A stretch of 64,000 nucleotides of DNA, taken from contig JACTAT010000006.1 in NCBI GenBank assembly GCA_014526335.1, positions 6,562,034-6,626,033 on the forward strand, in the 5' to 3' direction. A model generated the notes under the pieces. It searched no databases and was not told the origin of the DNA. It saw only the letters and a program-made list of their open reading frames with translations. The translations under genes were made by a program, and so were the position numbers. Positions 35,401 through 59,991 of the stretch are shown piece by piece (the stretch's first letter is position 1; each line of letters starts with the position of its first letter). The DNA comes from Chrysaora quinquecirrha (taxonomy: Eukaryota > Cnidaria > Scyphozoa > Semaeostomeae > Pelagiidae).

Positions 35401-38400
35401 CTTAAAACTTCCTTAGGTTCTTTAAAAAGAGTGCGGTTAATTCCTGCATAATAACATTGGGAGAAGTTTGGAATATAGACCCTTTATGGTATGCAAAATG
35501 GAAGGGTTAACAAGCACAAGATGTAGAATCATTGTCGATGTACCAGCATCTGCAGACTGTCACTCAAATAGCAATGCACTTGACTCGGTATTTGTGATAC
35601 AACTTTTTATCGAGTAGAAAACACATTCTTTCCTTCACTTCGGCTAGATCTTTTGCAACTTCAATCTAAAATTGGCTTGTATTTGTCTGCGGTTTCTAGT
35701 TTCAACTGATGACGATGTATTTCAGAAATTTAAGAAACAAGATCCAAGATAAATATTATGCCTGCCTACAAAAGTAATCGAAAAATGAAAAAAAAATTCT
35801 CACTTTGCTTCAATTACAAAAGAGACTTCTGTAAATTTCCTTTTGCTGTTTGATACGTACAGCTTTTATTTGAGGGTATTCAAGAAAATACGATGTTTGA
35901 TTGCTTCATTGAAGGAATAAAAACCCTTCCATTTTTATCTCAGCCTAACCTTAGTAGTTTCTCACGTAGGATAGTAAGCAATAAGCTCATTTTTTCTTTT
36001 TCCATCACAACTTTATTATTTTTTTCTTTATTGCAAGTCATGGATCTCTGATCGTTTCCCATTGTTAACACTTTCAGCTTCCCAGCGATGAGTTAGATTA
36101 ATTTCAGGGCTAAAAGCTCTAACACTTCGTCTTTAAAGTGCCTAAGCAGCCTGTGGCTAGTAACTAGCTGAATATAAAAGATAACTACGTGAAGCTTTTC
36201 GCTGCAAGTATGTCTACTTCGCGAAGCACCTGAAAATGTTCTGTTTTGACAATTCCTTAGGTGACTACACGCAGGGAAAAAAGCTGAGACAGGTTCTGCG
36301 AAAATCAACTTGCGCCGAATTTCATAGGTTATATACAATACGGAGGTGTGTTGCGTCGCTCATGCAAAAAACAGGCTAGATCATCTACGACATTATTGGC
36401 AACAAGCAGAAACATAACAAGTTCAACCAAATCATTGTTATAATACCGTGTTTCCTTGTTTCGCAGAACCTTTTTCTTCGAAAATGCACGTGTAATGTAT
36501 CACTTTTAGTTTTTATGGTCACGGAGACAATTTTCTATAATATCCTGTGGCCATTTCAAGCAAAAGGTCGCACGTGTAGCTTGACTTAACATGTTTTTCC
36601 GTTTCCAGACAGTGAGCTGCCACAAACGGCTTGGTACTGCCAATGACTTCTTCAATGGTCATGCCGAGCGATATTTCCACGTAATGTAAGTGTAGAGTAT
36701 CATGTAAGTTTGTGGTCAACTGTCAAATACTTGTATTGAATTGATCCAGCTGTGGCGTAGTGAGAGGTCCAACACTTGGGCGTTAAAAATGGGGTCAAAG
36801 CCAGGGCATGCCAAATGCTCGTTAGTTAATCTTTTTCTGAGATATTAGAAGGTGGTGCTAGATAACCCACATCACCTTCATAATCAGGGAGTAGCTTTTG
36901 GAAAAAAGCTGTAAAGCAAAATAATTTTTTACAAACTTTGTGGTGAGTTATTGCCACACAACCAGGCCCTCTGACTGCCCCAGTACTCATGATTGAAAAT
37001 CTGGTTTTGCACCAACAGGGATGGAGCCCCTGTTTGGTAAGATTCTTGAGAAACAATCTTCTTTGTTGGTAGAGGGAGTAACTACTCTGATGAAGATTTG
37101 CATTTACAAGTAATATCATGTCCCAAGTTGTTCTATTAGATGTTTGGAAACTTTTTCCTAGTCTTGGTAACTTCGTTGAATTGTAGTTGGGGATGATATG
37201 TTGTAGCCAGAGGAACAACTTGACTCTTTAACTCAGGGACTGCTGGTCCTTGCATTTTTGCTCTATGAAATGCTTTGCTTGTCTAATTGCATATTCAAAG
37301 GAGATTTACAATCAATAAGCCAGTTTTTCAATATGCAGTTATAAGAAACAACCAGAAGGAAACTATTTACATGGAGCAACAAAGAGAAAACGGCTCTTAA
37401 AATAATTCAAGTGTTGCTGAAAATTTATGATGGGACAAAAATAGGGCCCCAAGGGCATGTTCGAAGAACCACTCTGGTTGAAATATAGCTATTTCGGTCA
37501 AATGATGAAAGATTTTTATTGGTATGCACAACGATGACAATAATGATTATTATGATAATGGTGGTGGTTATGATGATGATGTTGATGACCACTATGATAA
37601 TGATGCTGATTGGTAAGGGTGATTGTGGTGGTAGAGGTAGTTGTAGTGCTGACGGTAAGAGTGGTTGTGGCGATTGTGATAGGGGTGATCGTGGTGATGG
37701 TTGTAGGAGTGGTTGTGGTGGTGGTGATAGGGGTAGTTGAGGTAATGGTTGTAGGGGTGGTTGTTGTGGTGGTGATGGGGGTGGTCGTGGTGATGGTGTA
37801 GGGGTGATTGTGATGGTGGTGCCGTTCCTTTAGATCTTGCCGCAGCCACACCGCCAATGATGGTGATGGTAATCATGATGATGATGATGATGATGATGAA
37901 GATTATAATTATCATGACAATTTTTATCATGAGGATAAAAATAATGACGATTTGTTTTGAAAACTGTTTTGAAATTGCCATCCTTTGCCAAGACTCTTTG
38001 ATCAATGATGAGAATGCATGAAATGTCATTTACAAAACCAAAGAAGGCAATTTGCCAGTTCCATGAGGTAAACAAGCATGATTCATGGAATCACGCTTGA
38101 GAGAAGAACAATTGTCACATGACCTTAAATTGACAAAGGGACTTGCAGGCCGTGATTGTGAAGAACAAACCACAAATTGCGCATCAATGGCCGAGACAAT
38201 GGCCCTAATGGCATTTTTGAGATGCTTTGTATTGTTACACATTTTCCATTGTTCAAGCATTGGTTAGTTAGTGAGTTAGTGAGTGAGTGAGTGACACTCT
38301 ACCCCCACTCCAATATGTTCGAATTCTTCGAACATAAAGAAGTTCTACTTCTAGCTTGGTAACATCCGAGCTTCCTTCGGTTAATTTCGCACCTTTCGAT

Positions 38401-39335: not shown

Positions 39336-39870
39336 ACTAATGAGAAGTTCTTTTAACTTTTAAATACGCCTAATGTAACGTTTTCTTAATGGCGCCTAGA
39401 CATTCCGACTTTGATTCAGACATTTTCCTTCCAAGCGGGCTAGCGGAGTAAGGTGGGCAAATTGAACATGCACTGTTTTGCGAACAGCTGATTTGAAATT
39501 TCACACTTCTATTTCACGCTAAGCAATTTTCAATTTCGTTCAAATTCTAAGCAATTAATTACATTTTCAAATGTTAGAAATAAAGATGCATTAATATAAC
39601 ACAAGGAGTAAATAGGATAAAATTTGTCACAATTAAACATAAAATATTAGAAGTAAGTGTAAGAGTTAAGTTTATGGAAGAGCTTTCGAGACTCAAGTTT
39701 AAAGTCGTGAATGAATTACTACATATGTAAATATTAACTATATTGGAATGAATAAACGCATTATACGATTGTAGCGTGGCAAGTCTGGCTTTCGTGGCAA
39801 GTATGTCCAACTACGTCAGCAGCATTTTAGACCAATCAGAGTCGCGCAATGGATTATGATGTGAGACAGG
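39336..39870. promoter_or_regulatory. Putative divergent promoter region, RWDD1 and plus-strand gene
   Basis: The 535-bp interval lies between the RWDD1 start codon (minus, 39335) and the plus-strand ORF start at 39871. It holds a CCAAT box (39832-39836, in ACCAATCAGAG) and a CRE-like TACGTCA (39812-39818). Position and motifs suggest a shared or back-to-back promoter; inference only. Confidence 0.45.
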
Positions 39871-41612
39871 ATGTGTGATGAGTCGTCAGGTGGAGGGGGG
39901 GTTAGATTGAGCAATAAGAAGAAGTTCCTGAGAAAATTTTCGCGAGTCAAATTGCGCTCTCGTTCGTTGTTGGTGTGCATACATATCTCAACGAATTTCA
40001 GTACTCTCGCTGCTGACGATCACGATCAAATCGACGAAAGAAGAACAAAATGTAAGTTTTGAAACTTTCCATATTTTATTAAACTGCAGTTATTAGTTGA
40101 GAAATGTGTTGTTTTATTTATATTTATATTTATATTTCTATCCCCATACATACTAGGCCTAATGTATTCCTTTCAGGGCCTAAATAAAATAATCCTTCTT
40201 GCTGCCCCAACTCGATAGAGAGAGACTATTTTGTATAGGCCTAAGTAATCTTGATTATAGGCTAACAGTAGATAGATAGTTAAAATGGGTTAAAGTCTAC
40301 CCTATCACGGAAAAAGATCCTCCATACCTAAAGAATAAGTATTTTTCCTGTTGATTTCATCAGAGATCCGGAGGAAAACAAAGATCAGGAAATTCCAAAC
40401 CAGGCTGAAAACGCCTAAACACTTTCACTCACACACAGGGATGGGCAGCTTCACCTGACTGAAAAGCAAAGATAGATTATTAAATGAAACAAATTAGTAG
40501 AGAAAGTGAAAAAAAAATTATAAATAAAGAGCAAATTTACAAAATTTTATTATAAGTTTACCATTAATTATAAGTTAAGGAAAATGCAGGATCTGTTAAC
40601 CAGAAGTATATTGTCATAAAATATTTCAAAACCATTAAGATTTTGAAGACTGATGATGATCCTTGCAATATAGAGTTGAAATATAGTAATAGAGATCTAC
40701 TTATTCTATTGATAATCATAAACATATTAATCATGAAAGTTCCAAAAAGATTAAGTTTCTTTCAATAGGAATTTCCTGAAGTTTACAAAAAGGGCTTCAT
40801 GCATCTGTAGTTTCTCGTACTACACAAGGTTTCTTGCAATAAAATAAGTGGATAAAAGTCATGCTATTTGTTGCTTTCACTTCAATAACAGGCCTCAAAA
40901 ATAAAAAAAACAGTTAATTATTGCATTTCAGCTGCTACTTGCCAATATGGTAAATGAAGACAGACTTACTTTATAAAATCACTTGAACTGACAATCTGCT
41001 ACATTTGGGGTTGCCCTGGTTCAAAGGCTTAATTGGCTCATTTAAACTTTCAAATATAACAATGAAAAGTGAAACTTAAATATTGGTGCCCTGCTTTGAC
41101 TTTTTTACTTTTATTGTATGTAAATAATTGTCATACTCTTTGAATTTTACTGCAGTGTTGAGGTTCCATAGTTGCGCCTTTGTACTTATGTATCAAACAG
41201 CAACTAACAGTAGAAATCACACATGCACAAGATTTAAATGAGTAAATGACCTTTCTGTAATCTTTCACTGTCATTGAGAGTTTTTGAGATAATCATCCAT
41301 CTCTGATGCTCTTCTTTGTAGTTGCTTTAGTGTTTTAAATGTAAATGTTCAAGTCTCTTTACCATCATTAAGTAGTTTTAAAGACATGTGACATAGTATG
41401 TAGACAAGACTTTCAGATAAGGTTGAAATTAATGTAACACTCCATCTAATATGTAACGTAATGAACATATTTGAGCCTTGCTAGTAATTTCATAGTTTCT
41501 GAACAATTGATTCTAAGATTTGATGATTCCATTTCAGACGCTGAAGAAATGGCACTGTCAGATTTTGACAAGGAAATTCTAGAAGCATTGACATCAATGT
41601 GTGCAAAAGAAG
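39871..41612 (+). CDS. Candidate two-exon 5' part of a gene, product unknown
   Basis: Exon A: 39871-40051, ATG start, Ser/Lys/Arg-rich, ending ...DQIDERRTK with donor T|GTAAGT. Exon B: 41538-41612, after acceptor CATTTCAG, reading AEEMALSDFDKEILEALTSM then donor GAAG|GTAACA. The phases match exactly across the 1.5-kb intron (T+AC). Translation could instead start at the ATG inside exon B. No domain is recognised. Exon B ends in phase 1; joining it to CAAAAATGAAAG at 43683 keeps frame with the integrase-protease gene, so these may be that gene's 5' exons, but that acceptor (GTTGGAG) is weak. Confidence 0.45.
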
Positions 41613-43687
41613 GTAACAATTATTCTGATGCCTTTGTAACACGATTATTTTTTGTTAAATCATTGTTAAAGAAACCTGTTTGTAACCAAGAAATATATCC
41701 TTGTAAGCAAGTATTTGTTACTTTTCTTAATACAACAATAAAGATATTAATAATAGTAATTATATTGTATTTATAATAATAATAATAATAATAATAAAAA
41801 TAATTATAATTATAATTATAATAACAATAAAAAAATTATAGGAATAATAATGATAGAAATGATAATGATGCAAGAACAGAAATTTTTAAATCTTATATTT
41901 TGATAAAGTTCTGTAGCACTAAACCTTACAATTGTCAAGTGTTTATCATTAAAACTACACAAAACAGAGTTAACGAGAAAAATTATTCCAACAATTACAT
42001 GCTATTGAGTTATAAATATGTACAATTAGAAGTATTTCTAAACAATTACCTATGCCTTAAACAATGAACATTCCAGTTTCAATATCTAGAATAAAGGAGT
42101 ACTACAAGTGTGAAGAAGTGCATTGGACAGGTTTCCCAGTACAAAATGTATGAGACAGGCACGGTTTTATCTTTGAAGTGGGTTCGCAACTTTGCATCTC
42201 ATTTTTTCATTTTCATTTAAATTGTGAAGGACTGATTCATTGAAAATTAGGACAAACCCCATCACTCCTTGGATTTGCCTCTGTTTGCTGGCCCACCTAG
42301 ATGAAATGTTCTAGGCACTCTCTTTAAAGGTTGCCTACCCCATGGTCTACACCAAGGGTGCCAATACATTTTTTATAGAAATAGTATGTCTGCTGAAATG
42401 AGATACTATTCTTGATAAATGGATGAACATTCTTAGCAAACAGTTGCAATTGTGATTCTGAAAAAATTAAGAAATATTCCCTTTTAGTAACCTGACTTAA
42501 AAATAACAGGCCCAACAAAGACATGAAACAGGTAGAAATGTCACAGCTTATGATTATTAACTAGAAAATATTATAAAGAGTTGTATCTATATCACCACAA
42601 ACTTAGATGCTGAAATTAAGCTTCTGTTTACGTTTTCTACCTGGTCTGATGAATCCTTGTAAACGAGATGCAAAGTTGCTAACCTGCTTCTAAGATAAAA
42701 CGGTCTCTGTCCCATATGTTTCTATAAGAAATACGTCGGAAGAATTCATAAGCTTTTAAGAACAGTTTCTTTTGTTCCTCGTATTCACCGCTCAGACATT
42801 TTTAGGGTGTACTTTTTGGATACTTTGTTTCGAGTAGAAGCATTTTTGTAGAGAATGTTCATTTTTAGCATCGTCTTGTGAAAGAGGCAGGTTTGACAGG
42901 TCCAAAAACCTTTTGCGTTGAGGATTCTTTCGCAAAATCCCAAGGAAGTTTGTTCTAAAGCGTAGCTAAGTCAGGAATTCAAAGTTTCAGTCCCGGTTTG
43001 ATCGCAATCACTCTTTCTCGGCAACCATTTCGGGGAAATATTTCCAAGTGTACCATTTTCTGAATTTCGTTGGTTTGTCGAAAACGGAAAGCTACTGTGA
43101 ATACTTCATAATTCATAACTACTACAATTCGAATCGTTATGTTTCTTGCAATCATTATATAAGGTCCGGGATTAGGAAAGATTGATTTGACAAAGATTGA
43201 CAAACATGATTTCTATATTTTTTAATTCTTTGTTCTTTATAACATCATTAAATGGAAAATTAAATTCCACCTTGGTTAATTGTTTCGGTCTGCTTCTGAA
43301 GTTCATACTCTGAGAAGTGACAGACAAAAATAGCTTGAGTATGGCCTAAAATGTTTATCGCAATTCCAAAATTAAAAAACATTCTAAAACAATTTTAGTT
43401 CCACACTAAATCTTAATGGTAGGCTAAAGCTATAACGTGCATTGTCTACACGGCCAGGCATTAGGAATAAGATTTACTATCACAGTTTCCCAATGGCATA
43501 ATTGTCGTTTTGTAGACCTTTTCAGTAAAGTCTGGGTCGGTGCGACATTTTTCTGGAACATGGCGGACATCTTGTGTAAGATAATCCGAGAGGGAATCCT
43601 CTCCGCGTGAAATGATGGAGACTGCGGTCGCTTCATAAGAGGTAGCGCAGCAAATTTTGCTCCAATTCACGTTTTGTTGGAGCAAAA
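41613..43687. other. Intron or intergenic, with simple repeats
   Basis: (ATA)n and AT-rich simple repeat at about 41770-41830. No domain-bearing ORF. AACATGGCGGACATC near 43558-43572 looks like a start-codon context but its ORF is only 16 codons long. Confidence 0.45.
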
Positions 43688-46600
43688 ATGAAAGAAAGGA
43701 TGTAAGTCTTAGCTTATCAGCCCAGTGAGGCATTCAACCTTTCAATGAGTATCTTGCATCTTGTTTCCAGAGTTTCTGCAGCTATTTTCGAAATTTATCA
43801 GGTTTGTTTTCTTTTATTATTGATGAACTTGAAGCTTAATTTGCTGTGCTACCTCTTCTTAAGCGTCGTTATTCCAGCTGTTCCACGAGGAGACAATAAT
43901 CGCCTCGACCCAAACTTCTGTACAGGCTCATTTAGTCTCCAGTAAAACACAAATTTCAGTATTTAAAACAATTATAATTGAATAATCAATCGTTTTGGTT
44001 TCAGGTCAAGAAAACGTTTCTGCTGTCCGTGAACCATCTGTCTCTCAGACTTCAGTAACTGTGGAACAGTCCGAACCTAACTGTTCCAATGCTGCAACAT
44101 TGCCATCTTTTCCAATTCCTTTGGACAGGAATGCCAAACAGATCGAGGAAGTGTTGAAATTGCCTTTCGACTCTTCGGAATTGTCATTTCGAGGTCCTTT
44201 CTCTGGCCCTTTGAAAATTATGCTATTGAAGTTTTTAATTCTTCGATACGATATGCCTAACCATTTCAGACATTCTACAGCTTTTTGCAACAAAGAACAG
44301 AGGTTAGCTGTTGAAAAATTCGTTAAAAAAAATCTCCGCAACCTTTTTTATAATAAAAATAAAATAAAACCCATTTACCAACTGAAATTAGACATTCTCG
44401 GCAACTTTGTTCTCAGCCAGTACGATGGTTTGCCTGTTGTAATTCACAAAACGTACAACAAAGGCACGAAACTCCTCTTAGAATCGAGAGAAATCATTAA
44501 GAAAGAGATTCTTGTGAAGGTTCTTGAGAGTCTTCACTGTACACAAACAGCTGATGGCTCTAAATCTTGTCTTCCTGGGGGAATAAATGCTCTCAGCAAA
44601 TCTTTCAATTCGAAATTTTATTACAAGGGTGTGTTTCAAGAGATCCGTAAGTTTCTTCAAGAATGTGAAACTTGCCGTCTCAATGTACCTTTGAGAATGA
44701 CTCAAGCTCCTCCTCCAAAGCCCATCCGTTCTTTCCATCCACACGAACGCCTGCAATATGATCTTATTGATCTTGCCCCTACAAAAAAAGGAAATTCATG
44801 AGAAATAATCAGTGGGGCTTTCGTTACATTTTGTCAATAAAGTGCTGTTTCACTAAATTTTGTTGGCTATTCCCATTGCAACGGAAAAAAGCTTCACATG
44901 TCCACAATGTGGTAAAGTTTCTTTTTGATGTTGAGGGTCCTCCTCAGATTCTACAGACGGATAACGGAAAAGAATTCGTCAACAAGATTATCAAGCAACT
45001 AAGTCAAGATTACGGTTTTCGAATCGTTAGAGGCAAGCCTTATGCTCCACAGCACCAAGGGCAAGTGGAACGTCTTAACCAGACTGTTAAGGCCTATCTT
45101 CGAAGGTTTCTTCAAAACTGCTCTTTAGAGGAGCAAGGTAAAACATGGCCTCTGCTACTCCCCGGAATAGCAGATAAGATTAACAAATCTTATCATTCCA
45201 CTATCGATGATATCCCATTTCGGGTGTACAGAAACCGCGAAGCAAGTTCCATAAACTTCACAATTGTTCCTGATGATAATACATTTCATCTCGATATCGA
45301 GAGAGAGTCGGCAGGAGTTACAGCTGATGACAGTGCGAATGATAATGAAGTGGACGATGAAGGTGATGTTTTGAGCGATTCTTCTTCTGTTGATTCTTGT
45401 TCCGAATCATACTCTATTGAAGACATCATGCAATCTTGTCTTGGCACATCTCTCTCTAAGTCTCTTTTTGCCAATACTTTGGCCAATCATTTGACTACTG
45501 AGAGTGTTGAAGGTATTGACGATGCTGAAGAAGAGCACTCAGAGGTTGACGATGAAGAAGAATTCAGCACCGTCAAATTTTCTTCTTCTCTTTTCCGCAA
45601 CACCTTCTCTAAACATATGTTGCAGCTCCGCATTCTTGAGTCAACAGAATTGACAATTCATAGAAACATTGAGCGGAGCATAAAGCATTCTCCGGGAGAT
45701 AAATTCAATGTTGGAGATTCTGTTCTTATTAGAAATCCCGCCATTACAATTTCCTCTGGTATCAAAAGGACCCGAGATCCTTTTGCGCCAACTAATGTTG
45801 TTGCTAAAGTAGTTGAGACATTACCTCAGGGCATGTACCGCTTGCAACTACCTGATGGGCAGACTACTTTTAAGAAGAATTTTTTCGAAGGCGAAATGGT
45901 TTTGCATCAAACCGCAAAAGCCAGTGATAGCCTTTCTCCTAACGCATGCGCTTCATTGCGAAGCAAAAAACAGCTTATCGATGCTATCTGTGACTTTGGC
46001 ATGCAAACAAGGCGTGCCATATACAGAGACAAGCTTAAAAGAAGCAAAACAGAACCAAAGAGCACTGACAAGCTTTTTGATAAATATTTCCACACACTTG
46101 ACTGTGGTGTTTTATCTGTCCTTCATGGAGAAGCTGATCCTGACAAGCAGCTTCATCTTCATGACCTTTTCACGAGGGGCATTGATGATTTGAAAAGGCT
46201 TGGCTTCTCGAATTTTCTCTATGGCTCAGTGGCATGGGAGAGAAAACGAAGAGTCTGGCTGAGTGATATTCTTCTCGAGTACCTCAATGCAGATGCTAGC
46301 CATACTTGTGTAGACTGTTTCACAGACTCACAATGCTTTTGCCAGCATGCTTGCTGTCAGCAAATGGCGCTCTCTTTTGCGGAAAGATGTGGGGTGAAAC
46401 AGAAATTGCCATCTTCAAAAAAATCCACCTCACAGAATGACAAGAGAAAACGCTCTGCGAAAAATAAGAGTGTTGACTCTCCTCATCCAAAACGCCGTAA
46501 TGAGAAAGAGAGTTTGGCAGGCAACAACGTAAAATCTAAAGCACAGCCCAGTTTTCTCATTTTGGAATCGAAAGTAAATCCGAGTCCCACAGTAGCTGAC

Positions 46601-48923
46601 CATGCTGATTTCGAAATTTTGTTTGAAAATTCCATTAAAAAGTGTTCTTCTCTCATTTCACACGAAGAGAACACAGAAACAAGAGTGGGCCTTGAGAATT
46701 TCAGGTTGAAGCTGATTTTCAGCAGACAGGAACCTGAAAGTTGGTCACCTTCAACGAAAAAAAATCTGAAATATTTTCTTGATATTGCATTCATGCAATA
46801 TCCTTCCTCTCTGAAGAAGAAGGTCTTCACCAAAACATTCATGCACGGTAATTCACCAATGCATGTCCAAATGCAAGGCACTACCACATTATGTGGCATG
46901 TGTGCCCTGAACAATACAATTACATCTTGTGTTGAGCCTGAGACAATGAATAAAATTGCTGATGCATGCTGGATTCAACAGGCCAGTGTACAAAACATCA
47001 GTAATGAGCTGGAAAATTTTCGATCACTTGCGGGTGACTATAACATCGATGTTGTGCTAAATGCAGCCAATCATGCTGGGTTTGAATATGCTCAGATAAA
47101 TACACGTTTGCATTCTTTTTTTACAAATGCAGACCCTTCCTCTCTTGAAAACGAACCTGAGGTCATGTATCAGGCTCTTCTGTGCTCTTTAGATGTGAAG
47201 CCAGGTGAAAGGCTGATGCTGATCAATGCTCAAAGCCATTATGCTACTATGCTATTTTGCGAGAAAGACTGCATCATTCTTGACAGCATCAAAGGTGCTT
47301 TGGAATACAGCAGTGTTAACTGTCTAGTTTACTTGTGGCAGCTAACGTATAGTCAAGGCTTCGGAATTTACAAATTTAAAATCCGACATGACTTCCATAT
47401 TCTCGAGGACGAAAACGAAATTCCGCAGAAGGAGAAAGACTTCTCTTCTCAGGATATCATGAGAGAGTCTTCTCTTGTGGATGACAGTCAGGAAGTGTCA
47501 GATCTGTTCCCTCATGTAAACGCACACGATCTGAGGACATTAAAGGGGAACTCGCTGGTCAATGACAGCATCATTCATGCTGTAGGCCTAGCAATAAATA
47601 CCCAGTGTCCTTCAGTATATGTAGTTGATTCTCTGATAACACACCAGCTCATAAAGAACCCTTTCTACTCGTTATCAAAGAAAAGTTTCAAAAAATTTCT
47701 ACCTCCTTGCTTGGATAGAATTTTGTTTCCCGCAAATGTTGATAAGCATTGGTGGGTTTTGTTAGCTGACTTCAGTTCATCAACATTCTCCATTTGTGAC
47801 TCTTTGGGCCTTAACCATGATTCTGAAATTAAGAATCTCAAGCAGGCTCTATTCAACAACAATTACGCTGATGCTCTTACCTTGAATGAGAAAGTTCTTC
47901 CTGTTAACCGCCAAGATGAATCAACTCAATGTGGTATTTTTGCTATTTGCTGGTTGATATCATTTGCTAACTATACAACAGCAGACTTCACCATTCTTGA
48001 CATGGACGATGTTAGAGAAATGTTGGCCAGGCATATTGTCACTGGAAATCACGCAGACCTTGCAAGTCCAAGTCTGTGGAGAGGTAACAATTTAAATCCA
48101 TAATATTTATAATTTCAAGTGAAATAAGTAAAATACACAAAATTAATGCCAATACGAGCGTATTGTCATTTATTGTGCTTGAAATTTGAAGACAAATTAT
48201 AGCTTATTGTTCGTCAGAATTGTTCGTCAGAGTTCATTTTCCCCCTTGCCATATAGCTATCAGTTTTCTATCTGACGAATGTTTTTAATTACGATCATCA
48301 ACCCATAATCTTACAAGTCTTCAATTTTTTTATAGAAAACGTAAGTTACAATAGCCTGGTGGATTACTACCATACATTCGACCATGAGCAAATAGCAATT
48401 GATGTAAGTACTTTTTCATTTTGCCTCCTTTGTAACTGTATATTATATCCTTCACGCAAAAAACCAACTTTTCATACCTGGGAATAAAGTAAAACTAATT
48501 CCTATTCCAATCTTTTTCAATATTCCAATTTATCCTTTTTAGGAAGAAAATCTCAGAATTCTTTATGGTACTGATTGAACCCTCCTTGGACTGACAACTG
48601 ACGTGCAGAGATTTTTATTTGAAGAAATCAAGATGAACAAAAATCATATCGTCACTGGACACCACTTTGCATTGGTCACACGAGATCAGCTGCAAAAATT
48701 TCTTTCTTGGAGAGCCGAACATAATTCAAAAGTTGGCGCTTTTCTTACAATGCAAAACCTTACACCCCCTATGAGGAGGTATCTCAGGGATCAATTTCAA
48801 ACACTCTGGGACCCTATTCATTATGAAGGAGAAGGTTGGATCATTATGTCAAAGAAGGATTACGAAGGTTTTCATCAATGGTCTTTGAATATGAGAGCAA
48901 GACTTATACATGACACAGAATAA
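43688..48923 (+). CDS. Integrase-Josephin-Ulp1 fusion gene (Ginger/gypsy-integrase class), spliced
   Basis: Exons 43688-43701, 43771-43801, 43878-43941, 44005-48083, 48336-48403, then 48543-48578 (stop) or 48609-48923. All junctions are GT..AG and in phase. Domains: integrase zinc-binding region (LHC... ECETC, second His not evident); DDE core with DLIDL, QTDNGKEF and GQVERLNQTVK; GPY/F-like module (FNVGDSVLIRNP...GMYRLQLPDG, about 45700-45900); a Cys-rich unknown region (46290-46400); Josephin-like fold (LCGMCALNN Cys, QSHYATM His, ILDS Asp; 46840-47400); Ulp1/C48 fold (DKHWWVLLADF His, ICDSLG Asp, STQCGIFAICW Gln/Cys; 47480-48030). One frame break: seven A at 44783-44789, needing one more base or -1 slippage. 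Length would be about 1430 or 1523 aa. Either a transposon of the Ginger type or a domesticated gene; no terminal inverted repeats were found. Confidence 0.82.
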
Positions 48924-48941
48924 CTATAAACTGTAGAAAAG

Positions 48942-48947
48942 AATAAA
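48942..48947 (+). terminator. Probable poly(A) signal of the integrase-protease gene
   Basis: AATAAA 19 bases after the stop codon at 48921-48923; it favours the long last exon 48609-48923. The satellite begins about 70 bases later. Confidence 0.65.
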
Positions 48948-49016
48948 TAGTACCGTTGAAATTATTAGAAATCAATCGATATATACAGAAGAGAAACTGA
49001 TTATTACCTGATGCAG

Positions 49017-52000
49017 GACGAAGAAGAACTGTTGCTGCTGAAGAAGAACTGTTGCTGAATTATACCATCATTGCCTTGTTATTATCGTTGCTGCTGGAGG
49101 AGAACTGTTGCTGAATTATACCATCATTACCCTTTTATTATCCTTGCTGCCGGAGGAGAACTGTTGCTGAATTATACCATCATTACCTTTTTATTATCGT
49201 TGCTGCTGGAGGAGAACTGTTGCTGAATTATACCATCATTACCTTGTTATTATCGTTGCTGCTGAAGAAGAACTGTTGCTGAATTATACCATCATTGCTG
49301 AATTATACCATCATTGCCTTGTTATTATCGTTGCTGCTGAAGAAGAACTGTTGCTGAATTATACCATCATTGCCTTGTTATTATCGTTGCTGCTGAAGAA
49401 GAACTGTTGCTGAATTATACCATCATTGCCTTGTTATTATCGTTGCTGCTGAAGAAGAACTGTTGCTGAATTATACCATCATTGCCTTGTTATTGTCGTT
49501 GCTGCTGAAGAAGAACTGTTGCTGAATTATACCATCATTGCCTTGTTATTGTCGTTGCTGCTGAAGAAGAACTGTTGCTGAATTATACCATCATTGCCTT
49601 GTTATTATCGTTGCTGCTGGAGAAGAACTGTTGCTGAATTATACCATCATTACCTTGTTATTATCGTTGCTGCTGGAGAAGAACTGTTGCTGAATTATAC
49701 CATTATTACCTTGTTATTATTGTTGCTGCTGGAGAAGAACTGTTGCTGAATAATACCATCATTACCCTTTTATTATCGTTGCTGCTGGAGGAGAACTGTT
49801 GCTGAATTATACCGTTGCTGCTGAAGAAGAACTGTTGCTGAATAAAAGTCGTTGCTGCTGAAGAAGAACTGTTGCTGAATTATACCATCATTGCCTTGTT
49901 ATTATCGTTGCTGCTGAAGAAGAACTGTTGCTGAATAATACCATCATTACCCTTTTTTTATCGTTGCTGCTGGAGGAGAACTGTTGCTGAATTATACCGT
50001 CATTGCTTTTTTATTATTGTTGCTGCTGGAGAGGAAATTTTGCTGAATAATAGTCGTTGCTGCTGCTGCTGGAAGAACTGTTGCTGAATTATTCCATTAT
50101 TACCTTGTTATTATCGTTGCTGCTGGAGGAGAACTGTTGCTGAATAATTCAATCATTACCCTTTTATTATTGTCTCTTTCCAAGAAGAACTGTTGCTGAA
50201 TTATACCATCATTACCTTGTTATTGTCGTTGCTGCTGAAGAAGAACTGTTGCTGAATAATACCATCGTTGCTGCTGAAGAAGAACTGTTGCTGAATTATA
50301 CCATCATTGCCTTGTTATTATCGTTGCTGCTGAAGAAGAACTGTTGCTGAATTATACCATCATTGCCTTGTTATTATCGTTGCTGCTGAAGAAGAACTGT
50401 TGCTGAATTATACCATCATTGCCTTGTTATTATTGTTGCTGCTGGAGGAGAACTGTTGCTGAATAATTCAATCATTACCTTTTATTATGGTCTCTTTCCA
50501 AGAGGAACTGATGCTGAATTATACCATCATTACCCTTTTATTATTGTCGCTTTCCAAGAAGAACTGTTGCTGAATAATACCATCATTACCCTTTTATTAT
50601 CCTCGCTTTACAAGAAGAACTGTTGCTGAATTATACCATTATTACCTTGTTTATCCTCGCTTTGATGTTGCTGAATTATACCATCATTACGTTGCTGCTG
50701 AAGAAGAACTGTTGCTGAATAATACCATCATTACCCTTTTATTATCGTCGCTGCCCAAGAAGAACTGTTGCTGAATTATACAATCATTGCTCTTTTATTA
50801 TCGTTGCTGCTCGAGGAGAACTGTTGCTGAATTATACCATCATTACCTTGTTATTATCGTTGCTGCTGGAGAAGAACTGTTGCTGAATTATACCATTATT
50901 ACCTTGTTATTATCGTTGCTGCTGGAGAAGAACTGTTGCTGAATTATACCATCATTGCGTTGCTGCTGGAGAAGAACTGTTGCTGAATTATACCATCATT
51001 GCCTCGTTGCTGCTGAAGAAGAACTGTTGCTGAATTATACCATCATTACCCTTTTATTATTGTTGCTGCTGGAGGAGAACTGTTGCTGAATTATACCATC
51101 ATTGCCTTGTTATTGTCGTTGCTGCTGAAGAAGAACTGTTGCTGAACTGTTGCTGAATGTTGCTGAATAACCATCATTACCCTTTTATTATCGTTGCTGC
51201 TGGAGGAGAACTGTTGCTGAATTATACCATCATTACCTTGTTATTATCGTTGCTGCTGAAGAAGAACTGTTGCTGAATTATACCATCATTGCCTTGTTAT
51301 TATCGTTGCTGCTGAAGAAGAACTGTTGCTGAATAAAAGTCGTTGCTGCTGAAGAAGAACTGTTGCTGAATTATACCATCATTGCCTTGTTATTGTCGTT
51401 GCTGCTGAAGAAGAACTGTTGCTGAATAAAAGTCGTTGCTGCTGAAGAAGAACTGTTGCTGAATTATACCATCATTGTTGCCTTGTTATTACCATCATTA
51501 CCCTTTTATTATCGTTGCTGCTGGAGGAGAACTGTTGCTGAATTATACCATGCTTATTGTTGCTGCTGGAGAAGAACTGTTGCTGAATTATACCATCATT
51601 GCCTTGTATTATCCTTGCTGCGTGTTGCTGAATTATACCATTATTACCTTGTTATTATTGTTGCTGCTGGAGGAGAACTGTTGCTGAATAATAATTCGTT
51701 GCTGCTGAAGAAGAACTGTTGCTGAATTATACCATCATTGCCTTGTTATTGTCGTTGCTGCTGAAGAAGAACTGTTGCTGAATAATACCATCATTACCCT
51801 TTTATTATCGTTGCTGCTGAAGAAGAACTGTTGCTGAATTATACCATCATTGCTCTTTTATTATCGTTGCTGCTGGAGGAGAACTGTTGCTGAATTATAC
51901 CATCATTGCCTTGTTATTATCGTTGCTGCTGAAGAAGAACTGTTGCTGAATATACCATCATTACCTCGTTGCTGCTGAAGAAGAACTGTTGCTGAATTAT

Positions 52001-54530
52001 ACCATCATTGCCTTGTTATTATCGTTGCTGCTGAAGAAGAACTGTTGCTGAATTATACCAAGTCGTTGCTGCCGGAGGAGAACTGTTGCTGAATTATACC
52101 ATTATTACCTTGTTATTATTGTTGCTGCTGGAGAAGAACTGTTGCTGAATAATACCATCATTACCCTTTTATTATCGTTGCTGCTGAAGAAGAACTGTTG
52201 CTGAATAAAAGTCGTTGCTGCTGAAGAAGAACTGTTGCTGAATTATACCATCATTGCCTTGTTATTATCGTTGCTGCTGAAGAAGAACTGTTGCTGAATA
52301 AAAGTCCCTTTTTTATCGTTGCTGCTGGAGGAGAACTGTTGCTGAATTATACCGTCATTGCTTTTTTATTATTGTTGCTGCTGGAGAGGAAATTTTGCTG
52401 AATAATACCATCATTACCCTTTTATTATCGTCGCTTTCAAAGAAGAACTGTTGCTGAATAATACCATCATTACCCTTTTATTATCGTCTGCTTTAGAAGA
52501 AGAACTGTTGCTGAATTATACCATCATTACCTTGTTATTATCGTTGCTGCTGGAGAAGAACTGTTGCTGAATTATACCATCATTGCCTTGTTATTTTCGT
52601 TGCTGCTGAAGAAGAACTGTTGCTGAATTATACCATCATTGCCTTGTTATTATCGTTGCTGCTGAAGAAGAACTGTTGCTGAATTATACCATCATTACCT
52701 TGTTATTATCGTTGCTGCTGGAGAAGAACTGTTGCTGAATTATACCATCATTACCCTTTTATTATCGTTGCTGCTGGAGGAGAACTGTTGCTGAATTATA
52801 CCATCATTACCCTTTTATTATCGTTGCTGCTGAAGAAGAACTGTTGCTGAATAATTACCATTATCGTTGCTGCTGGAGAAGAACTGTTGCTGAATTATAC
52901 CATCATTACCTTGTTATTATCTTGCTGCTGAAGAAGAACTGTTGCTGAATTATACCATCATTGCCTTGTTATTATCGTTGCTGCTGAAGAAGAACTGTTG
53001 CTGAATTATACCATCATTGCCTTGTTATTATCGTTGCTGCTGAAGAAGAACTGTTGCTGAATTATACCATCATTGCCTTGTTATTATCGTTGCTGCTGAA
53101 GAAGAACTGTTGCTGAATAATACCATCATTGCTGCTGAAGAAGAACTGTTGCTGAATTATACCATCATTGCCTTGTTATTATCGTTGCTGCTGAAGAAGA
53201 ACTGTTGCTGAATAAAAGTCGTTGCTGCTGAAGAAGAACTGTTGCTGAATAAAAGTCGTTGCTGCTGAAGAAGAACTGTTGCTGAATTATACCATCATTG
53301 CCTTGTTATTATCGTTGCTGCTGAAGAAGAACTGTTGCTGAATTATACCATCATTGCCTTGTTATTATCGTTGCTGCTGAAGAAGAACTGTTGCTGAATT
53401 ATACCATCATTACCTTGTTATTATCGTTGCTGCTGGAGAAGAACTGTTGCTGAATTATACCATCATTACCTTGTTATTATTGTTGCTGCTGGAGAAGAAC
53501 TGTTGCTGAATAATACCATCATTACCCTTTTATTATCGTTGCTGCTGGAGGAGAACTGTTGCTGAATTATACCATCATTACCTTGTTATTATCGTTGCTG
53601 CTGGAGAAGAACTGTTGCTGAATTATACCATCATTGCCTTGTTATTTTCGTTGCTGCTGAAGAAGAACTGTTGCTGAATTATACCATCATTGCCTTGTTA
53701 TTATCGTTGCTGCTGGAGAAGAACTGTTGCTGAATTATACCATTATTACCTTGTTATTATTGTTGCTGCTGAAGAAGAACTGTTGCTGAATTAAACCATC
53801 ATTACCTTGTTATTGTCGTTGCTGCTGAAGAAGAACTGTTGCTGAATAAAAGTCGTTGCTGCTGAAGAAGAACTGTTGCTGAATTATACCATCATTGCCT
53901 TTGCTGCTGAAGAAGAACTGTTGCTGAATTGTTATCGTTGCTGCTGAAGAAGAACTGTTGCTGAAATATACCATCATTGCCTTGTTATTGTCGTTGCTGC
54001 TGAAGAAGAACTGTTGCTGAATTATACCATCATTGCCTTTTATTATTGTCGTTGCTGCTGAAGAAGAACTGTTGCTGAATTATAAATCATTAGTCGTTGC
54101 TGCTGAATACAATCATTGCTTTTGCTGATTATCCATCATTGCCTGCTGCTGAAGAAGAACTGTTGCTGAATAAAAGTCGTTGCTGCTGAAGAAGAACTGT
54201 TGCTGAATCATCATTGCCCTTTTATTATCGTTGCTGCTGAAGAAGAACTGTTGCTGAATTATACCATCATTGCCTTGTTATTGTCGTTGCTGATGAAGAA
54301 GAACTGTTGCTGAAATATACTATCATTGCCTTGTTATTGTCGTTGCTGCTGAAGAAGAACTGTTGCTGAATTATACCATCATTGCCTTGTTATTGTCGTT
54401 GCTGCTGAAGAAGAACTGTTGCTGAATAAAAGTTGTTGCTGCTGAAGAAGAACTGTTGCTGAATTATACCATCATTGCCTTTTTATTTTCGTTGCTGCTG
54501 AAGAAGAACTGTTGCTGAATTATGCTATTA
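49017..54530. repeat. 5.5-kb minisatellite, ~56-bp unit, on the order of 100 copies
   Basis: The consensus unit starts CGTTGCTGCTGAAGAAGAAC, then TGTTGCTGAATTATACCATC, then ATTGCCTTGTTATTAT. Variants: GGAGAAG or GGAGGAG for GAAGAAG, ACCCTTTTATTATC for GCCTTGTTATTATC, and a ~37-bp short unit ending GAATAAAAGT. The order of variants recurs locally, suggesting higher-order duplication. The unit contains stops in forward frames and its length is not a multiple of 3, so it is non-coding. The right edge (54270-54530) becomes irregular and then grades into pyrimidine-rich TATCTTTATCTTTT sequence. Confidence 0.95.
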
Positions 54531-54606
54531 TTACCCTTTTATTTATCTTCTTATCTTTATCTTTTTTCTATCTTTATCTTTTATTTCTATCCTTATCTTT
54601 GTTTCA

Positions 54607-55500
54607 CTATGCTGTCATTGCATTATATCTTTATCTTTGGATATTACTCTTCAATCGTCATTGCTACAACTGGATGCTGCTGTCATTGCATTATATCTTT
54701 ATCTTTGGATATTACTCTTCAATCGTCATTGCTACAACTGGATGCTGCTGTCATTGCATTATATCTTTATCTTTGGATATTACTCTTCAATCGTCATTGC
54801 TACAACTGGATGATGCTGTCATTGCATTATATCTTTATCTTTGGATATTACTCTTCAATCGTCATTGCTACAACTGGATGATGCTGTCATTGCATTATAT
54901 CTTTATCTTTGGATATTACTCTTCAATCGTCATTGCTACAACTGGATGCTGCTGTCATTGCATTATATCTTTATCTTTGGATATTACTCTTCAATCGTCA
55001 TTGCTACAACTGGATGCTGCTGTCATTGCATTATATCTTTATCTTTGGGTATTACTCTTCAATCGTCATTGCTACAACTGGATGCTGCTGTCATTGCATT
55101 ATATCTTTATCTTTGGATATTACTCTTCAATCGTCATTGCTACAACTGGATGCTGCTGTCATTGCATTATATCTTTATCTTTGGATATTACTCTTCAATC
55201 GTCATTGCTACAACTGGATGCTGCTGTCATTGCATTATATCTTTATCTTTGGATATTACTCTTCAATCGTCATTGCTACAGCTGGATGCTGCTGTCACAA
55301 TATCTTTATCTTTGGGTATTACTCTTCAATCGTCATTGCTACAACTGGATGCTGCTGTCATTGCATTATATCTTTATCTTTGGATATTACTCTTCAATCG
55401 TCATTGCTACAACTGGATGCTGCTGTCAATTATATCTTTATCTTTACTCTTCAATCGTCATTGCTACAACTGGTTGCTGCTGTCATTGCATCTACAATTT
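54607..55500. repeat. 68-bp minisatellite, 13 copies, open in all three forward frames
   Basis: Eleven consecutive copies of the TTGGATATTACTCTTCAATC core are spaced exactly 68 bp (54637 to 55249, with 55379 in register after a short unit); two units are shortened (near 55300 and 55430). Copies are nearly identical, so the array is young or homogenised. Forward ORFs 54512-55600 (362 aa), 54841-55548 and 54909-55532 cover the array in three different frames, each giving the same 68-residue hydrophobic, Cys- and aromatic-rich period. Confidence 0.93.
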
Positions 55501-55600
55501 ACCATTATCCAAAGCATTTGTCATTACATTAACGTTGTTGCAGTTTGATTTCCCCCAGTTGTTATGTTGCCAAAGAGCTGACGGGGTTCCTTCTGCTTAA

Positions 55601-56296
55601 AAATGGAAACTCAAGCAATAGGCAAACCCTTGACATGGGGCTTGAGCTTAACTCAGTGAGGTTTCTTGCTGAGGACAATTTTGCCTGGCAACATGTTTAG
55701 GGAATTATAAAGAGAAATTTTAATTTTGAGTCAAGCAGAATTGAATTATTGGTGTTACATTTAGTATTCTGAACAACTGTTGGAACAAAAGCAAGTCTGA
55801 TGCCTTGTTAAATCTTTTCTTTTGTAAAAGGGAGACAAATTTATAATGGATTGAATTCTACAACAGACGTATCTATTTAGGACAATATAGTGATCAAGCT
55901 TAATGGTTTACTTTTTCTTTTTCATGGATGTCCTTTTGCTTCCATATTTGAACTGAAGCCTAAACGACACCTTTCTAAAGATATGAAGAAAATGGGCACC
56001 TTAATTTATAATTTTGGGTTGGCCATCTACACTAGGACATATTTCATCATGAGTGCTTTCTGTTGTTAATGCAAAAAATATTGTGTTTAATACAAAGGGT
56101 GTTGATTCTTTAACACAAAAGACCTAGTGTTAGTGGGCCGAAAATGGAAAATTGCTGCTCTTGTGCATGTTGTTTTGTTATTTAAAAATCTTAAAAAGCA
56201 GTCTCTACTTTTTTAAAAATATCCACACAATATATTTTGTATCCTTGTTAGGCAAATTCTTTTGTCTGCATCAGGAACAACTGTATTGGATATTAT
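55601..56296. other. No gene seen; 3' flank of the kinase gene
   Basis: AT-rich, no domain. The missing C-terminal kinase segment was looked for on the minus strand here and not found. Confidence 0.4.
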
Positions 56297-58117
56297 TTAA
56301 TGAAGTCTCTTGCTTTTCAACTTTGCTGTTTTAACAACCTTGCTGACAAGACATCCATAAGCATAAATATCACTCTCTCTTGACAGTGGCTTGATACCAT
56401 TAACAATTTCAGGAGCTACCCATGGATACTTTAATTTATACTCATCTCTCTCGACTGAAGGTATGGTGCTTAATTTTGACTTGGTAGAAAGAACACTTTT
56501 CCCAAAATCAACAATGACAGCAGACATACCAGCTTCTACTAAGACATTGTCTGTCTTAATGTCCCCATGCACATATCCAGTTGTATGGACATGCAGCAAA
56601 ACATCAGCAAGGCTTGCAAAGACTTTCCACCATTCTTCCTTTTTTGTTGGCAAACCATCGAAAATTTTATTAGATCCAATTTTCAGAATTTCTTTGATTG
56701 TTGTTGATTCTCTGCTAATGCCATGAAAACTTGTCACAAGATGATATGGCTTGCTTTCAATGACGACACCAAGAAGTTTTGGGATTCCCCTGTGGGCATG
56801 CAAATTAAGCAGCACATTTGCCTCCCTGAGCACTAAACGTTTCATTGCATCATCAGAGAAACCTTCCAACTCATGATATGCCTTGACAGCAACATCCATG
56901 CCCCTATATGTAAACAGACAGCAAGACCCAAACGTACCTGCATGCTTTTTACTATCAGGCACTTCCACTAATTCATCATTATTAAGGAACATTGATGATG
57001 GCAACTGAAGGCTCTTGCTGTATTTTGAAAGCTCTTTTCTTTCTCTAAACTACTCTGCAGCTTCTCTTTCTCCATCCTTTCATTTCTGTACAAATTAATT
57101 GCTGTCCTAAAACGGACACTCACTAACTTTGCATGATCCACCTGTTCCTTATCCTGGCCAACTGCAATCTCATTTTCTGCTTCAGCTTGACTCTTTGATG
57201 CCATTTCCACACCTTCCTTATCCCTACCGTCAACTTCTTCTAGCAAAAACTTTACACCATAGTAGCATCTTACTCGTTTGCTGTCTTGAAAATTTTTCAC
57301 CCTTGAGCCAAAAACAAAACGCAAACACTTACCAATCACATTCCCTGGTACAGCTTCCCCCAACTCTCTCTGCACTCTCTTGCAAACTCGCTTTACTTCA
57401 ACTTTGCTTTTCTGTTGAAGCACTAAATTTTTGGACAACCTGTGATGAAGAATAATAGCATTAAAAATAGTAGCCTCGTAGACTTGAGTCGTAGTATTCG
57501 CTCCTCAGGCCAATCTGATAGATATAGGTCGCTCAGAACTACGACTCATCAGCTTCCTAATAAAAACCTGGGCAGAATTTGAATGCAGCTTGCGAATGCA
57601 AAGCTCTATGTGAATTCGCCAATTCAATTTTTGATTTGTTGATTTGTTACCGTCGATAAATTACTGTTGAGAAACGGAAGTTGCCATGAACCAATCAAAT
57701 TGCAGATTCGAAATAATACTGCGCTGTGATTGGTTTCGAGAAAAGTCTGGTTTTTGTCCAGCTTTTTGTTATAAAGTTGATAAGTCCCACTCTTGAGCAT
57801 TAGGCCATTCAATTCAAATTTTTTTCAGTTAATAGTTGTTGCTGTTGCTCTACAGTTTACGAAGAGTGGGACTTGTGTAATGAGTCTAGCGGCCTCGCCT
57901 CAGATTTAGGCCTAATTTCAATGCTTCAGAATGCAAATGCAGAAGTCAAGTTTTTTGTGGCTAGCAAATTTTTAACAATTATAAAGTCAAGTTAGATAAA
58001 ATAATTAACAACAGCAACGTACCACTTGACAATCCATTTGTCTCTCTCACTGAGAATGCCGGGTTTCAAGCTTTGCATTTCCTCAGTGTGGGCTTCACCG
58101 CTGGTAGATTCCGCCAT
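56297..58117 (-). CDS. Protein kinase with N-terminal helical region, two exons, frameshifted and C-truncated
   Basis: Exon 1: 58117-58023 (MAESTSGEAHTEEMQSLKPG...WIVK, donor TG|GTACGT). Exon 2: 57439-56297 (acceptor ATCACAG|G); the codon TGG is split and in phase. Residues ~32-185 are Lys/Glu-rich and helical (KRVCKRVQRELGE, RMEKEKLQSSLEKEK). The kinase domain, numbered from 57004: Gly loop GTFGS 23-27, VAVK Lys41, Glu61, catalytic loop HGDIKTDN 146-153 (HGD rather than HRD), DFG 166-168, APE 197-199. A stop at 56297 follows the DIYAYGCLV helix, so the last ~60 residues of a normal C-lobe are lacking. The helical and kinase frames differ by one base; an extra A in a four-A run (about 57035-57038) restores 413 codons. 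Catalytically plausible up to the truncation; substrate unknown. Confidence 0.8.
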
Positions 58118-59991
58118 TGCGAATTGAACCAGTCAACCAACCACCTGCTGTCCCTTGTCTCCTTGTGTTCTCCTCAGGCCGTTTTCTCCTCAGCCCGCCC
58201 TTTTCTCCTCAGGCCACGCCCTTATTATTTTTTTTTTTTAATTGCATGTTTAAGAAGGATAATAGCCCCATAATAGCCTTATTCATTGCCTGCCTTATCG
58301 ACAAATTGTCAACGAAAATGACCATATGAATCAGAACATCTTGCATGTATTTAGTATTTAGTATCAGAAGCACTTCAGTTGGCTTTTGCTTTATAATCTA
58401 TATTTATATGATGTTTTTCTCAATTTATGTTTATATGTTTGTATGTATGTTTGTATGTTAATTTATATGTTCGCTTATAACTAAAGATCCACTCCACGCA
58501 CAGGAAAACTAAAGGTATCTTTGGAATCGGCAATTACCCGTGAGTGTCCTCGGCGAGGAAATTTTTCAAAAACTCTAAGAAATAACTTTAAGAAACAAAC
58601 AAACAGTCAGAGGTGAAAGATTTGTTTTGTTTTTGCAGAAGACACCTCTGTCACCTTAAAAGATGTAAATCTCCTACATTAATATATTCCTAAATTGTTT
58701 TCTTTAAAATGTGGAGCTCCTTATAAATATCTATTACTGTACTTCCCCGAATAGTTTCACGGAACAACCGAGCCCCTACTGCTACCGAAGCGTTTACAAA
58801 TTAACCCGACATCAGCGGGTATTAAGACTAGTAGATCATAAAGGGACAAATCCCTGTACATTATAGGGTCAACTAGCCAACGGACTCACAGAGGGGTATA
58901 TCAATTAACTAGGAAAAAATTTTTCAAAAGTAAAGGAAAGAACAATTTTCAATAGCTAACTATTTTTAACACAAAAAGGGTATCTTCACTTCACAATTTA
59001 CTTGGTATAAATCCTACCTTCTCTTATCCTATATAAATTAGCAATAAATATCCCAAAACCCTTAATTTTTCGAGAGTTATTCCATATCTCTTTTTTTTCC
59101 AATTTTATTTGGAAAAACTGAAGGTTCCAGATAGTAAGCAGTGTGAATATATTCACTTGTAAGCTCTTTTGGGTCGGCTTATAAATAGGAATGTGTTTTT
59201 TTCAAAGTTGACAACATTTTTGTCGATAAAAGTAAAAAAGTACGAGATAACGTGAAAAACAAAAAGAATTTGATGCTTTCTGGACTATAGCGATGCGCGG
59301 TGAGGTAAATAAAATCCAAATATAGCCAATTGGCTTACAATAAGGCGACCTAATAGACGGGGAAGTTTGGCTATTAAGTAAAAATAAGATGGGCCTGTAT
59401 CTGGTTTGGCTTATAAACACGTGGGCTGACAATTAGGACGTTACGTTATACCATATACCGAAAAACCTAATGGGGCCGCCCCGCATCATCGGCAAAGCAG
59501 GGTTTTTGCCTTAATTTTGTTTTCTGTATGTCCATCTTTGCCTTTATTTTTTGTAAAATTATAGCCATGTTTTGTAAAATAAGAAGCTATTTGAATTTTA
59601 AGATAAATAGGTTAGCAAATGGGGTCTAACTTTCAAATTTTAGTCTAGCAGGTTCTTAAATTTTAGGTTTTTATGTACGCGGGTTTTTACTTTGAAGGTC
59701 TGTTAGGAACGAAATGTTAATTTCAGTTGATCTTGCAATCACTCTGTGCCAGTTTTAAAATAAAAATTCTGACGAACACATTTCACTAATAGCCAAAGCA
59801 AGTAGCCTTGGCTTTATCATTTACCAAAGGTGGTGCACCCCTCTACGCCCATGTAACTCACACATAACAGTAGTATTCTTTTCTACTACTGTTATTATTA
59901 TCAATTATCATCATTTAATGGAGTGAATGAGTATACCAGGGGATCATGAAATCCCCCTAAACGACCTTCACTGGATGTCAAAGTTAATCAA
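58118..59991. other. Kinase upstream flank, no gene seen
   Basis: At 58165-58225 TTTTCTCCTCAGSCC is repeated three times. A TTTGTATGTATG-type stretch lies at about 58430-58470. No domain-bearing ORFs. The ORF at 59432-59202 is unsupported. Confidence 0.45.

What the first reader, a model, noticed from the sequence alone, without database searches (positions are those of the whole stretch)
43688..48923. One gene combines a DDE integrase, a Josephin-like deubiquitinase fold and a Ulp1 SUMO-protease fold
Seen: integrase motifs, then two separate papain-like active sites. The first (LCGMCALNN ... QSHYATM ... ILDS) follows the whole Josephin layout: Q/C helix, a middle 'NAxxxxGFE' helix-strand, His and Asp/Asn strands. 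The second (KHWWVL ... ICDSLG ... STQCG) is C48/Ulp1. Known: some Ginger-type transposons are reported to carry extra domains including cysteine proteases (from memory, unverified). A paired deubiquitinase and deSUMOylase on an integrase is not an arrangement I know. Inference: the element or domesticated protein may strip ubiquitin and SUMO from chromatin or from itself around integration.
Basis: partly seen in the sequence, partly recalled or inferred. Interest (0 to 1): 0.86.

Follow-up and report, generated by a model that had tools for sequence, protein, structure and literature searches.

The report
Transposon integrase carrying two modifier-removing proteases
A repeated, apparently mobile gene in a eukaryotic genome joins a DNA-inserting enzyme to two different protein-cutting domains, one of the ubiquitin-removing Josephin type and one of the SUMO-removing Ulp1 type, and comparison of copies shows that natural selection has acted to keep both.

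Summary
Confirmed and extended. One open frame (44771-48103, 1110 aa) holds an integrase core (rve 5e-12), a Josephin-like domain (46850-47410) and a Ulp1/C48 domain (1e-7). Pfam sees no Josephin in the window itself; in relatives with the same layout P0122 (42% identical over 99%) passes its cut-off and P0124 falls just below. A family profile ranks the five Josephin sequences of the PDB first; the AlphaFold model (pLDDT 75) fits Josephin-2 best, tied with C39 peptidases; hhalign support is weak. The gene is multi-copy, with a left end (window 39770) matched 8 times in the genome. Six copies show purifying selection on both proteases (dN/dS 0.16-0.22 and 0.11-0.19); Josephin catalytic residues are kept in 7 of 7 covering copies, Ulp1 residues in 5 of 10. 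A second family in the genome has Josephin plus C48 in one frame. The window copy has a frame break in the integrase and a stop in a predicted last exon. Ginger1 transposons are reported with OTU or Ulp1 'but not both'; I found no Josephin case in print. No terminal repeats or target duplications were found, so Ginger1 membership is open. Enzyme roles are inferred.

The parts
39770..58223 (+). Repeated unit that carries the gene. Left end (TGTAGCGTGG...) is sharp; right end of this copy unresolved, 58223 is the last base of the last significant match to other copies
   Evidence: Same left edge with different flanks in the window and 4 copies; 8 genome matches to the left 801 bases, the window included, 6 of them starting at base 1-3; extents
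43986..44801 (+). Upstream ORF: N-terminal part of the integrase, zinc-binding region 44580-44684, first catalytic Asp codon 44760
   Evidence: Integrase_H2C2 5.4e-4, below curated cut-off; resembles P0121-P0124 by eye; D codon
44783..44789 (+). A-run where the two integrase frames meet; the window copy changes frame here
44771..48103 (+). 1110-aa open frame: integrase core, linker, Cys-rich region, Josephin-like domain, Ulp1 domain
44801..45250 (+). DDE integrase core (residues 11-160); D 44960, E 45068
   Evidence: rve 5.1e-12; 74-82% identical to P0121-P0123, 43% to P0124; dN/dS 0.05-0.12 against six copies
45641..45925 (+). SH3/GPY-F-like segment (residues 291-385)
   Evidence: 51-57% identical to P0121-P0123, 23% to P0124; assignment by eye, no Pfam match over cut-off
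46181..46405 (+). Cys-rich conserved region CxxC...CxHxCC...C (residues 471-545), possible zinc-binding module
   Evidence: C513, C516, C524, H526, C528, C529, C540 invariant in 5 of 5 sequences; no Pfam match over cut-off
46850..47410 (+). Josephin-like deubiquitinase domain (residues 694-880); Q 46874, C 46892, H 47237, Tyr 47240, D 47282
47483..48070 (+). Ulp1/C48 SUMO-protease-like domain (residues 905-1100); H 47747, D 47798, Q 47927, C 47930
   Evidence: Peptidase_C48 1.2e-7 in the whole frame, 2.2e-9 on its own; SENP chains by sequence
48336..48403 (+). Predicted exon downstream of the Ulp1 domain (splice-signal based)
48543..48923 (+). Predicted last exon; carries a TGA at 48576-48578 in the window copy
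   Evidence: 126-aa counterpart open in C343, C357, C102 and C47 (4 of 11 fetched copies); dN/dS 0.26-0.28 against these four, 0.38-0.40 against C390, C205 and C493

Best explanation
This is a decayed copy of a multi-copy mobile DNA element whose integrase-type transposase carries two isopeptidase-type domains in tandem, Josephin-like and Ulp1-like. Shown: the single-frame architecture, multi-copy dispersal with a common left end, Josephin catalytic residues kept in the copies, and purifying selection on both protease domains. Inferred: the integrase core cuts and joins the element's ends while the Josephin-like domain removes ubiquitin and the Ulp1-like domain removes SUMO from proteins at the integration site. 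The most likely targets are the transposase itself and the host's SUMO-dependent silencing and SUMO-targeted ubiquitin-ligase machinery, which would otherwise mark the complex for removal or silencing. A paired deSUMOylase and deubiquitinase would undo both steps of that pathway.
Confidence: 0.62

Rival explanations
1. The two cysteine protease domains process the element's own protein (polyprotein-type cleavage, as adenain does in adenovirus) rather than removing ubiquitin or SUMO.
For: The Ulp1 segment also matches adenovirus endoprotease weakly (Peptidase_C5 3.1e-4, 20.9 bits, just below its cut-off of 21.3). Integrase and proteases share one chain.
Against: The His-aromatic gatekeeper, typical of deubiquitinases and Gly-Gly-cleaving proteases, is kept in all copies that cover it and in the relatives. 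The best fold row is a Josephin bound to ubiquitin. No double-Gly processing sites were looked for.
Confidence: 0.15
2. The gene is domesticated: a host gene derived from a transposase, no longer mobile.
For: No terminal repeats found; introns predicted; purifying selection.
Against: Many dispersed copies: outside a dispersed repeat in the 5' part, 58 matching stretches on 18 contigs, the window's included, at 67-100% identity (40 of 2683 candidates scored). A shared sharp left end in different flanks, several decayed copies and a broken frame in the window copy.
Confidence: 0.12
3. The Josephin-like segment is a different papain-like enzyme (for example C39-like) without deubiquitinase function.
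Against: Sequence profiles rank Josephins first; the C, H and acid register matches ataxin-3 in the alignments.
Confidence: 0.1
4. The copies were spread by segmental duplication and recombination, not by transposition of this integrase.
For: No target duplications; the right edge of C343 and C357 is a SINE-like dispersed repeat; identity changes abruptly near 44.85 kb, so copies recombine.
Against: Left edge is the same in the window and 4 copies with unrelated flanks, and 6 of 8 genome matches start within its first 3 bases.
Confidence: 0.15

Closest known systems
Ginger1 DNA transposons (Bao et al. 2010, PMC2836005, passages read)
   Same: Gypsy-type integrase used as transposase, C-terminal Ulp1 (or OTU) cysteine protease domain, introns in most of the listed families.
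   Different: Here a Josephin-type domain sits before the Ulp1 domain; the paper states OTU or Ulp1 'but not both', and the table in the passages lists no Josephin. No TIRs or CCGG/CCGT duplications found here. The repeated unit spans at least 18 kb (listed Ginger1 elements: 2.6-7.1 kb) and includes a kinase ORF.
VTD/OTU-bearing Helitrons (PMC9741609, passages read)
   Same: A transposon protein with two deubiquitinase-type domains: 121 VTD-containing Helitrons also have an OTU domain.
   Different: Helitrons use a Rep/helicase protein, not a DDE integrase; the second enzyme there is another deubiquitinase type, not a SUMO protease; the passages mention Josephins only as a known host class.
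Josephin (MJD) deubiquitinases: ataxin-3, Josephin-1/2
   Same: Q/C/H/acid catalytic layout, papain-like fold, aromatic residue after His.
   Different: Very divergent (16-19% identity over the structural matches); Asp where ataxin-3 has Asn; fused to an integrase.
Ulp1/SENP SUMO proteases (C48)
   Same: Pfam PF02902 over cut-off; H/D/Q/C order; SENP5 and SENP1 hits by sequence.
   Different: Encoded by an apparently mobile element; substrate untested.
Polinton/Maverick elements
   Same: rve integrase and a Ulp1/adenain-type protease in one element (recalled).
   Different: No polymerase, ATPase or capsid match among the nine ORFs of the unit that I scanned; integrase and protease are in one protein here.

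Membership tests
Ginger1 transposons | Gypsy-type DDE integrase core in the transposase | tested here: met
   rve 5.1e-12; D and DD35E
Ginger1 transposons | N-terminal H2C2 zinc finger | tested here: inconclusive
   Integrase_H2C2 5.4e-4, below curated cut-off; by eye the second His position reads Cys in the window and relatives
Ginger1 transposons | YPYY motif | not tested
   No reference sequences of Ginger1 were at hand
Ginger1 transposons | GPY/F motif | tested here: inconclusive
   Conserved SH3-like segment; motif read by eye only
Ginger1 transposons | 40-270 bp terminal inverted repeats | tested here: inconclusive
   None seen between 34000-44000 and 48100-60000, nor for the left end in the rest of the window or in the fetched copies; right end of the window copy unresolved
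Ginger1 transposons | CCGG- or CCGT-type target duplication | tested here: inconclusive
   No duplication seen in C357 or C343 between the edges found
Ginger1 transposons | C-terminal OTU or Ulp1 domain, not both | tested here: met
   Ulp1 present, no OTU match at E<=1; the extra Josephin domain is not in the published description that I read
Josephin (MJD) deubiquitinases | Sequence match to the family profile | tested here: inconclusive
   Window segment: no match at E<=10. Relatives with the same layout: P0122 over cut-off, P0124 below it, P0121 and P0123 none at E<=1 in the whole protein; L044 9.1e-4, below it
Josephin (MJD) deubiquitinases | Catalytic Q, C, H, Asn/Asp in order with aromatic after His | tested here: met
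   the Q lies one residue further from the Cys than in ataxin-3
Josephin (MJD) deubiquitinases | Josephin fold | tested here: inconclusive
Josephin (MJD) deubiquitinases | Ubiquitin hydrolysis | not testable with these tools
   needs protein
Ulp1/C48 peptidases | PF02902 over curated cut-off | tested here: met
   32.3 bits, cut-off 20.7
Ulp1/C48 peptidases | His, Asp, Gln, Cys catalytic set | tested here: met
   Present in the window; all four kept in 5 of 10 covering copies
Ulp1/C48 peptidases | SUMO cleavage | not testable with these tools
   needs protein
Polinton/Maverick | Protein-primed polymerase B, packaging ATPase, capsid genes | tested here: inconclusive
   No such Pfam match in the nine ORFs of the unit that were scanned; shorter ORFs were not scanned

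The most novel reading that the evidence does not exclude
A new class of large (at least 18 kb) mobile element that carries a counter-silencing kit: one transposase that removes both ubiquitin and SUMO, plus a separate protein kinase gene in the same repeated unit that is also under purifying selection. Transposases of this superfamily may swap deubiquitinase classes as modules (OTU, Josephin, Ulp1 and perhaps a USPL1-like domain in P0125).
Probability: 0.3. Interest if true: 0.82.

Novelty: new variant of a known kind. Interest (0 to 1): 0.63.

Why it matters
Bao et al. proposed that the ubiquitin pathway is involved in transposition because transposases carry one such protease (passages). 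A transposase family that carries both, from two different folds, under measurable selection, makes that idea directly testable with active-site mutants of each protease. It also adds the Josephin class, which is not among the deubiquitinases on transposons in the passages I read.

Tried and rejected
Led nowhere: Pfam and PDB phmmer on the isolated Josephin segment; a homolog search drawn from residues 660-890 only (247 candidates, none at E<=0.01; the search over residues 1-1110 then worked); viral and prokaryote contigs (only two weak integrase matches, L001 and L002); single-sequence AlphaFold (pLDDT 32, discarded); inverted-repeat searches for TIRs; right-end and target-duplication search; naming the host by its ataxin-3 (not completed). 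Considered and rejected: programmed frameshift at the A-run, because its length differs among copies and relatives P0121-P0123 are open there. Pfam ArgoL1 and rve hits of ORF 54446-55600 are translated minisatellite. The 5' exons implied by a start at 43688 were not shown; one splice choice that I worked out by hand falls out of frame. P0123 was left out of the hhalign family (fragment) and of alignment A3, and P0125 out of the family alignments (different C-terminus). Of the 81 stretches, I counted 23 that cover only query bases 304-694 as a dispersed repeat and set them aside.

Absence claims in print rest in one open-access library, with passages of six papers read. I take several Josephin counts to be the name Josephine; for PMC6431247 a find for Josephin in the main text gave 0, the other papers of that list were not opened for it, except PMC9741609.
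Full report
WHAT IS THERE. The frame 44771-48103 (1110 aa) contains an integrase core (rve, 5.1e-12) and a Ulp1 peptidase (PF02902, 1.2e-7), both above Pfam's cut-offs. The zinc-binding part and first catalytic Asp (44760) lie in the preceding ORF 43986-44801, in another frame; the two meet at an A-run, 44783-44789.

CATALYTIC RESIDUES. In the window the Josephin set is Q 46874, C 46892, H 47237, Tyr 47240, D 47282, and the Ulp1 set is H 47747, D 47798, Q 47927, C 47930. Eleven own-genome copies were examined. Seven cover all five Josephin positions, and all seven keep all five. Ten cover the four Ulp1 positions: five keep all four (C493, C357, C102, C47, C246a), five have lost one or two (C343, C205, C434, C390, C246b). 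The aromatic residue after the catalytic His is a mark of most deubiquitinase families and of Gly-Gly-cleaving proteases (PMC7391069, passages).

MOBILITY. The gene has many further copies. A DNA search with window 43200-48950 gave 81 matching stretches, a lower bound because 40 of 2683 candidates were scored. By my count 23 of them cover only a dispersed repeat in the 5' part (query 304-694); the other 58 lie on 18 contigs, the window's included, at 67-100% identity. Copies extend well beyond the gene. Their left edge is window 39770, followed in the window and in C493, C357, C343 and C102 by the same TGTAGCGTGG..., with unrelated flanks. The left 801 bases have 8 matches, the window included, and 6 of the 8 start within the first 3 bases. 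The right edge of the window copy is unresolved. In C343 and C357 the shared sequence ends at a dispersed SINE-like repeat, with no inverted repeat and no target duplication visible; the same last 600 bases occur in C102. So it behaves like a mobile element, but how it moves is not shown.

SELECTION. For six copies compared with the window (C102, C343, C357, C205, C434, C390), in-frame dN/dS is 0.05-0.12 (integrase core), 0.16-0.22 (Josephin; p from 1e-11 to 5e-9), 0.11-0.19 (Ulp1) and 0.32-0.39 (spacer). Shifted frames of the Josephin segment give 0.61-1.41, none with p<0.05; shifted frames of the Ulp1 segment give 0.56-0.82 and 2.2-3.1, the latter with p 0.01-0.04. A protein-guided alignment of C102 and C343 gave 0.16 for Josephin and 0.12-0.17 for Ulp1. 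C205, C434 and C390 have 1-2 in-frame stops in each protease domain, so they are decayed. The six copies are related to each other, so these are not six independent tests. The reading is that both protease domains were under constraint in the lineages that made these copies.

STATE OF THIS COPY. The window copy is probably not intact: frame break in the integrase and an in-frame TGA in a predicted last exon whose counterpart is open in four copies. Identity to C343, C357 and C102 drops near 44.85 kb from mostly 90-98% to mostly 85-90% (third codon positions 65-84%), so copies have recombined.

HOW GENERAL. Two proteins from other sources (P0121, P0122) have integrase, Josephin region and Ulp1 in one frame. 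In the same genome, L044 (contig C359) has a Josephin match (9.1e-4, below cut-off) and a C48 domain in one frame, 35% identical to the window over 429 positions; its integrase part was not fetched. Two more long frames with weak Josephin hits lie on contig C360 and were not read. P0125 has a related integrase (41% over 164 aa) but a different C-terminus with a sub-threshold USPL1-type match.

HOW IT MOST LIKELY WORKS. Shown: architecture, copy spread, constraint. Inferred: DNA cutting and joining by the integrase, ubiquitin removal by the Josephin-like domain, SUMO removal by the Ulp1-like domain. From general knowledge (recalled, not looked up here), SUMO marks are used to silence transposons and SUMO chains recruit ubiquitin ligases that remove proteins from DNA. 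A protein that removes both could shield the transposase or open the target chromatin.

KNOWN OR NEW. Ginger1 transposases carry OTU or Ulp1, 'but not both' (PMC2836005, passages). Some Helitrons carry two deubiquitinase types (PMC9741609, passages). None of the searches named under Tried and rejected showed me a Josephin on a transposon. I file it as a new variant of a known kind, Ginger1-like, without claiming Ginger1 membership, because its termini could not be tested.

Noticed in passing
window 56297-57049 (-), with 56968-57504 (-): Protein kinase ORF (PK_Tyr_Ser-Thr 1.8e-21) inside the repeated unit, found in the same order in copies C493, C343, C102 and C390; dN/dS 0.14 against C343, 0.08 against C102 (77 codons), 0.18 against C390. 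Whether it belongs to the element is open.
   Followed up: partly
window about 44850: Sharp drop in identity to three other copies, from mostly 90-98% on the left to mostly 85-90% on the right: a recombination point inside the integrase.
   Followed up: partly
window 49020-54544 and 54610-55491: 56-bp and 68-bp minisatellite arrays directly behind the gene, present also in several copies.
   Followed up: partly
window about 43500-43900: A dispersed repeat with inverted arms (43629-43665 and 43829-43865) in the 5' part; 23 of 81 genome stretches match only this part.
   Followed up: no
P0125 residues about 732-1027: A related integrase with a different C-terminus that weakly resembles USPL1-type SUMO isopeptidase (Peptidase_C98, 0.0035, below cut-off; no PDB relative): possibly a third protease class on this type of integrase.
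   Followed up: partly
L044 (G000 C359:48900-50330); G000 C360:51999 and C360:161777: Further long frames in the same genome with weak Josephin matches; C359 also has C48 in the same frame, and C360:162568 has a C48 hit nearby.
   Followed up: partly
window 46181-46405: Conserved CxxC...CxHxCC...C region between integrase and proteases, invariant in 5 of 5 sequences, without a Pfam match over cut-off.
   Followed up: no
own-genome copies C357, C343, C102, right edge: The right edge of C357 and C343 is a 262-bp dispersed repeat, also present in C102 (37 other hits among the 40 scored of 99 candidates), ending where similarity between C357 and C343 ends.
   Followed up: partly
window 19166-22187: Endonuclease and reverse transcriptase ORFs of a LINE-type element, outside the unit.
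   Followed up: no
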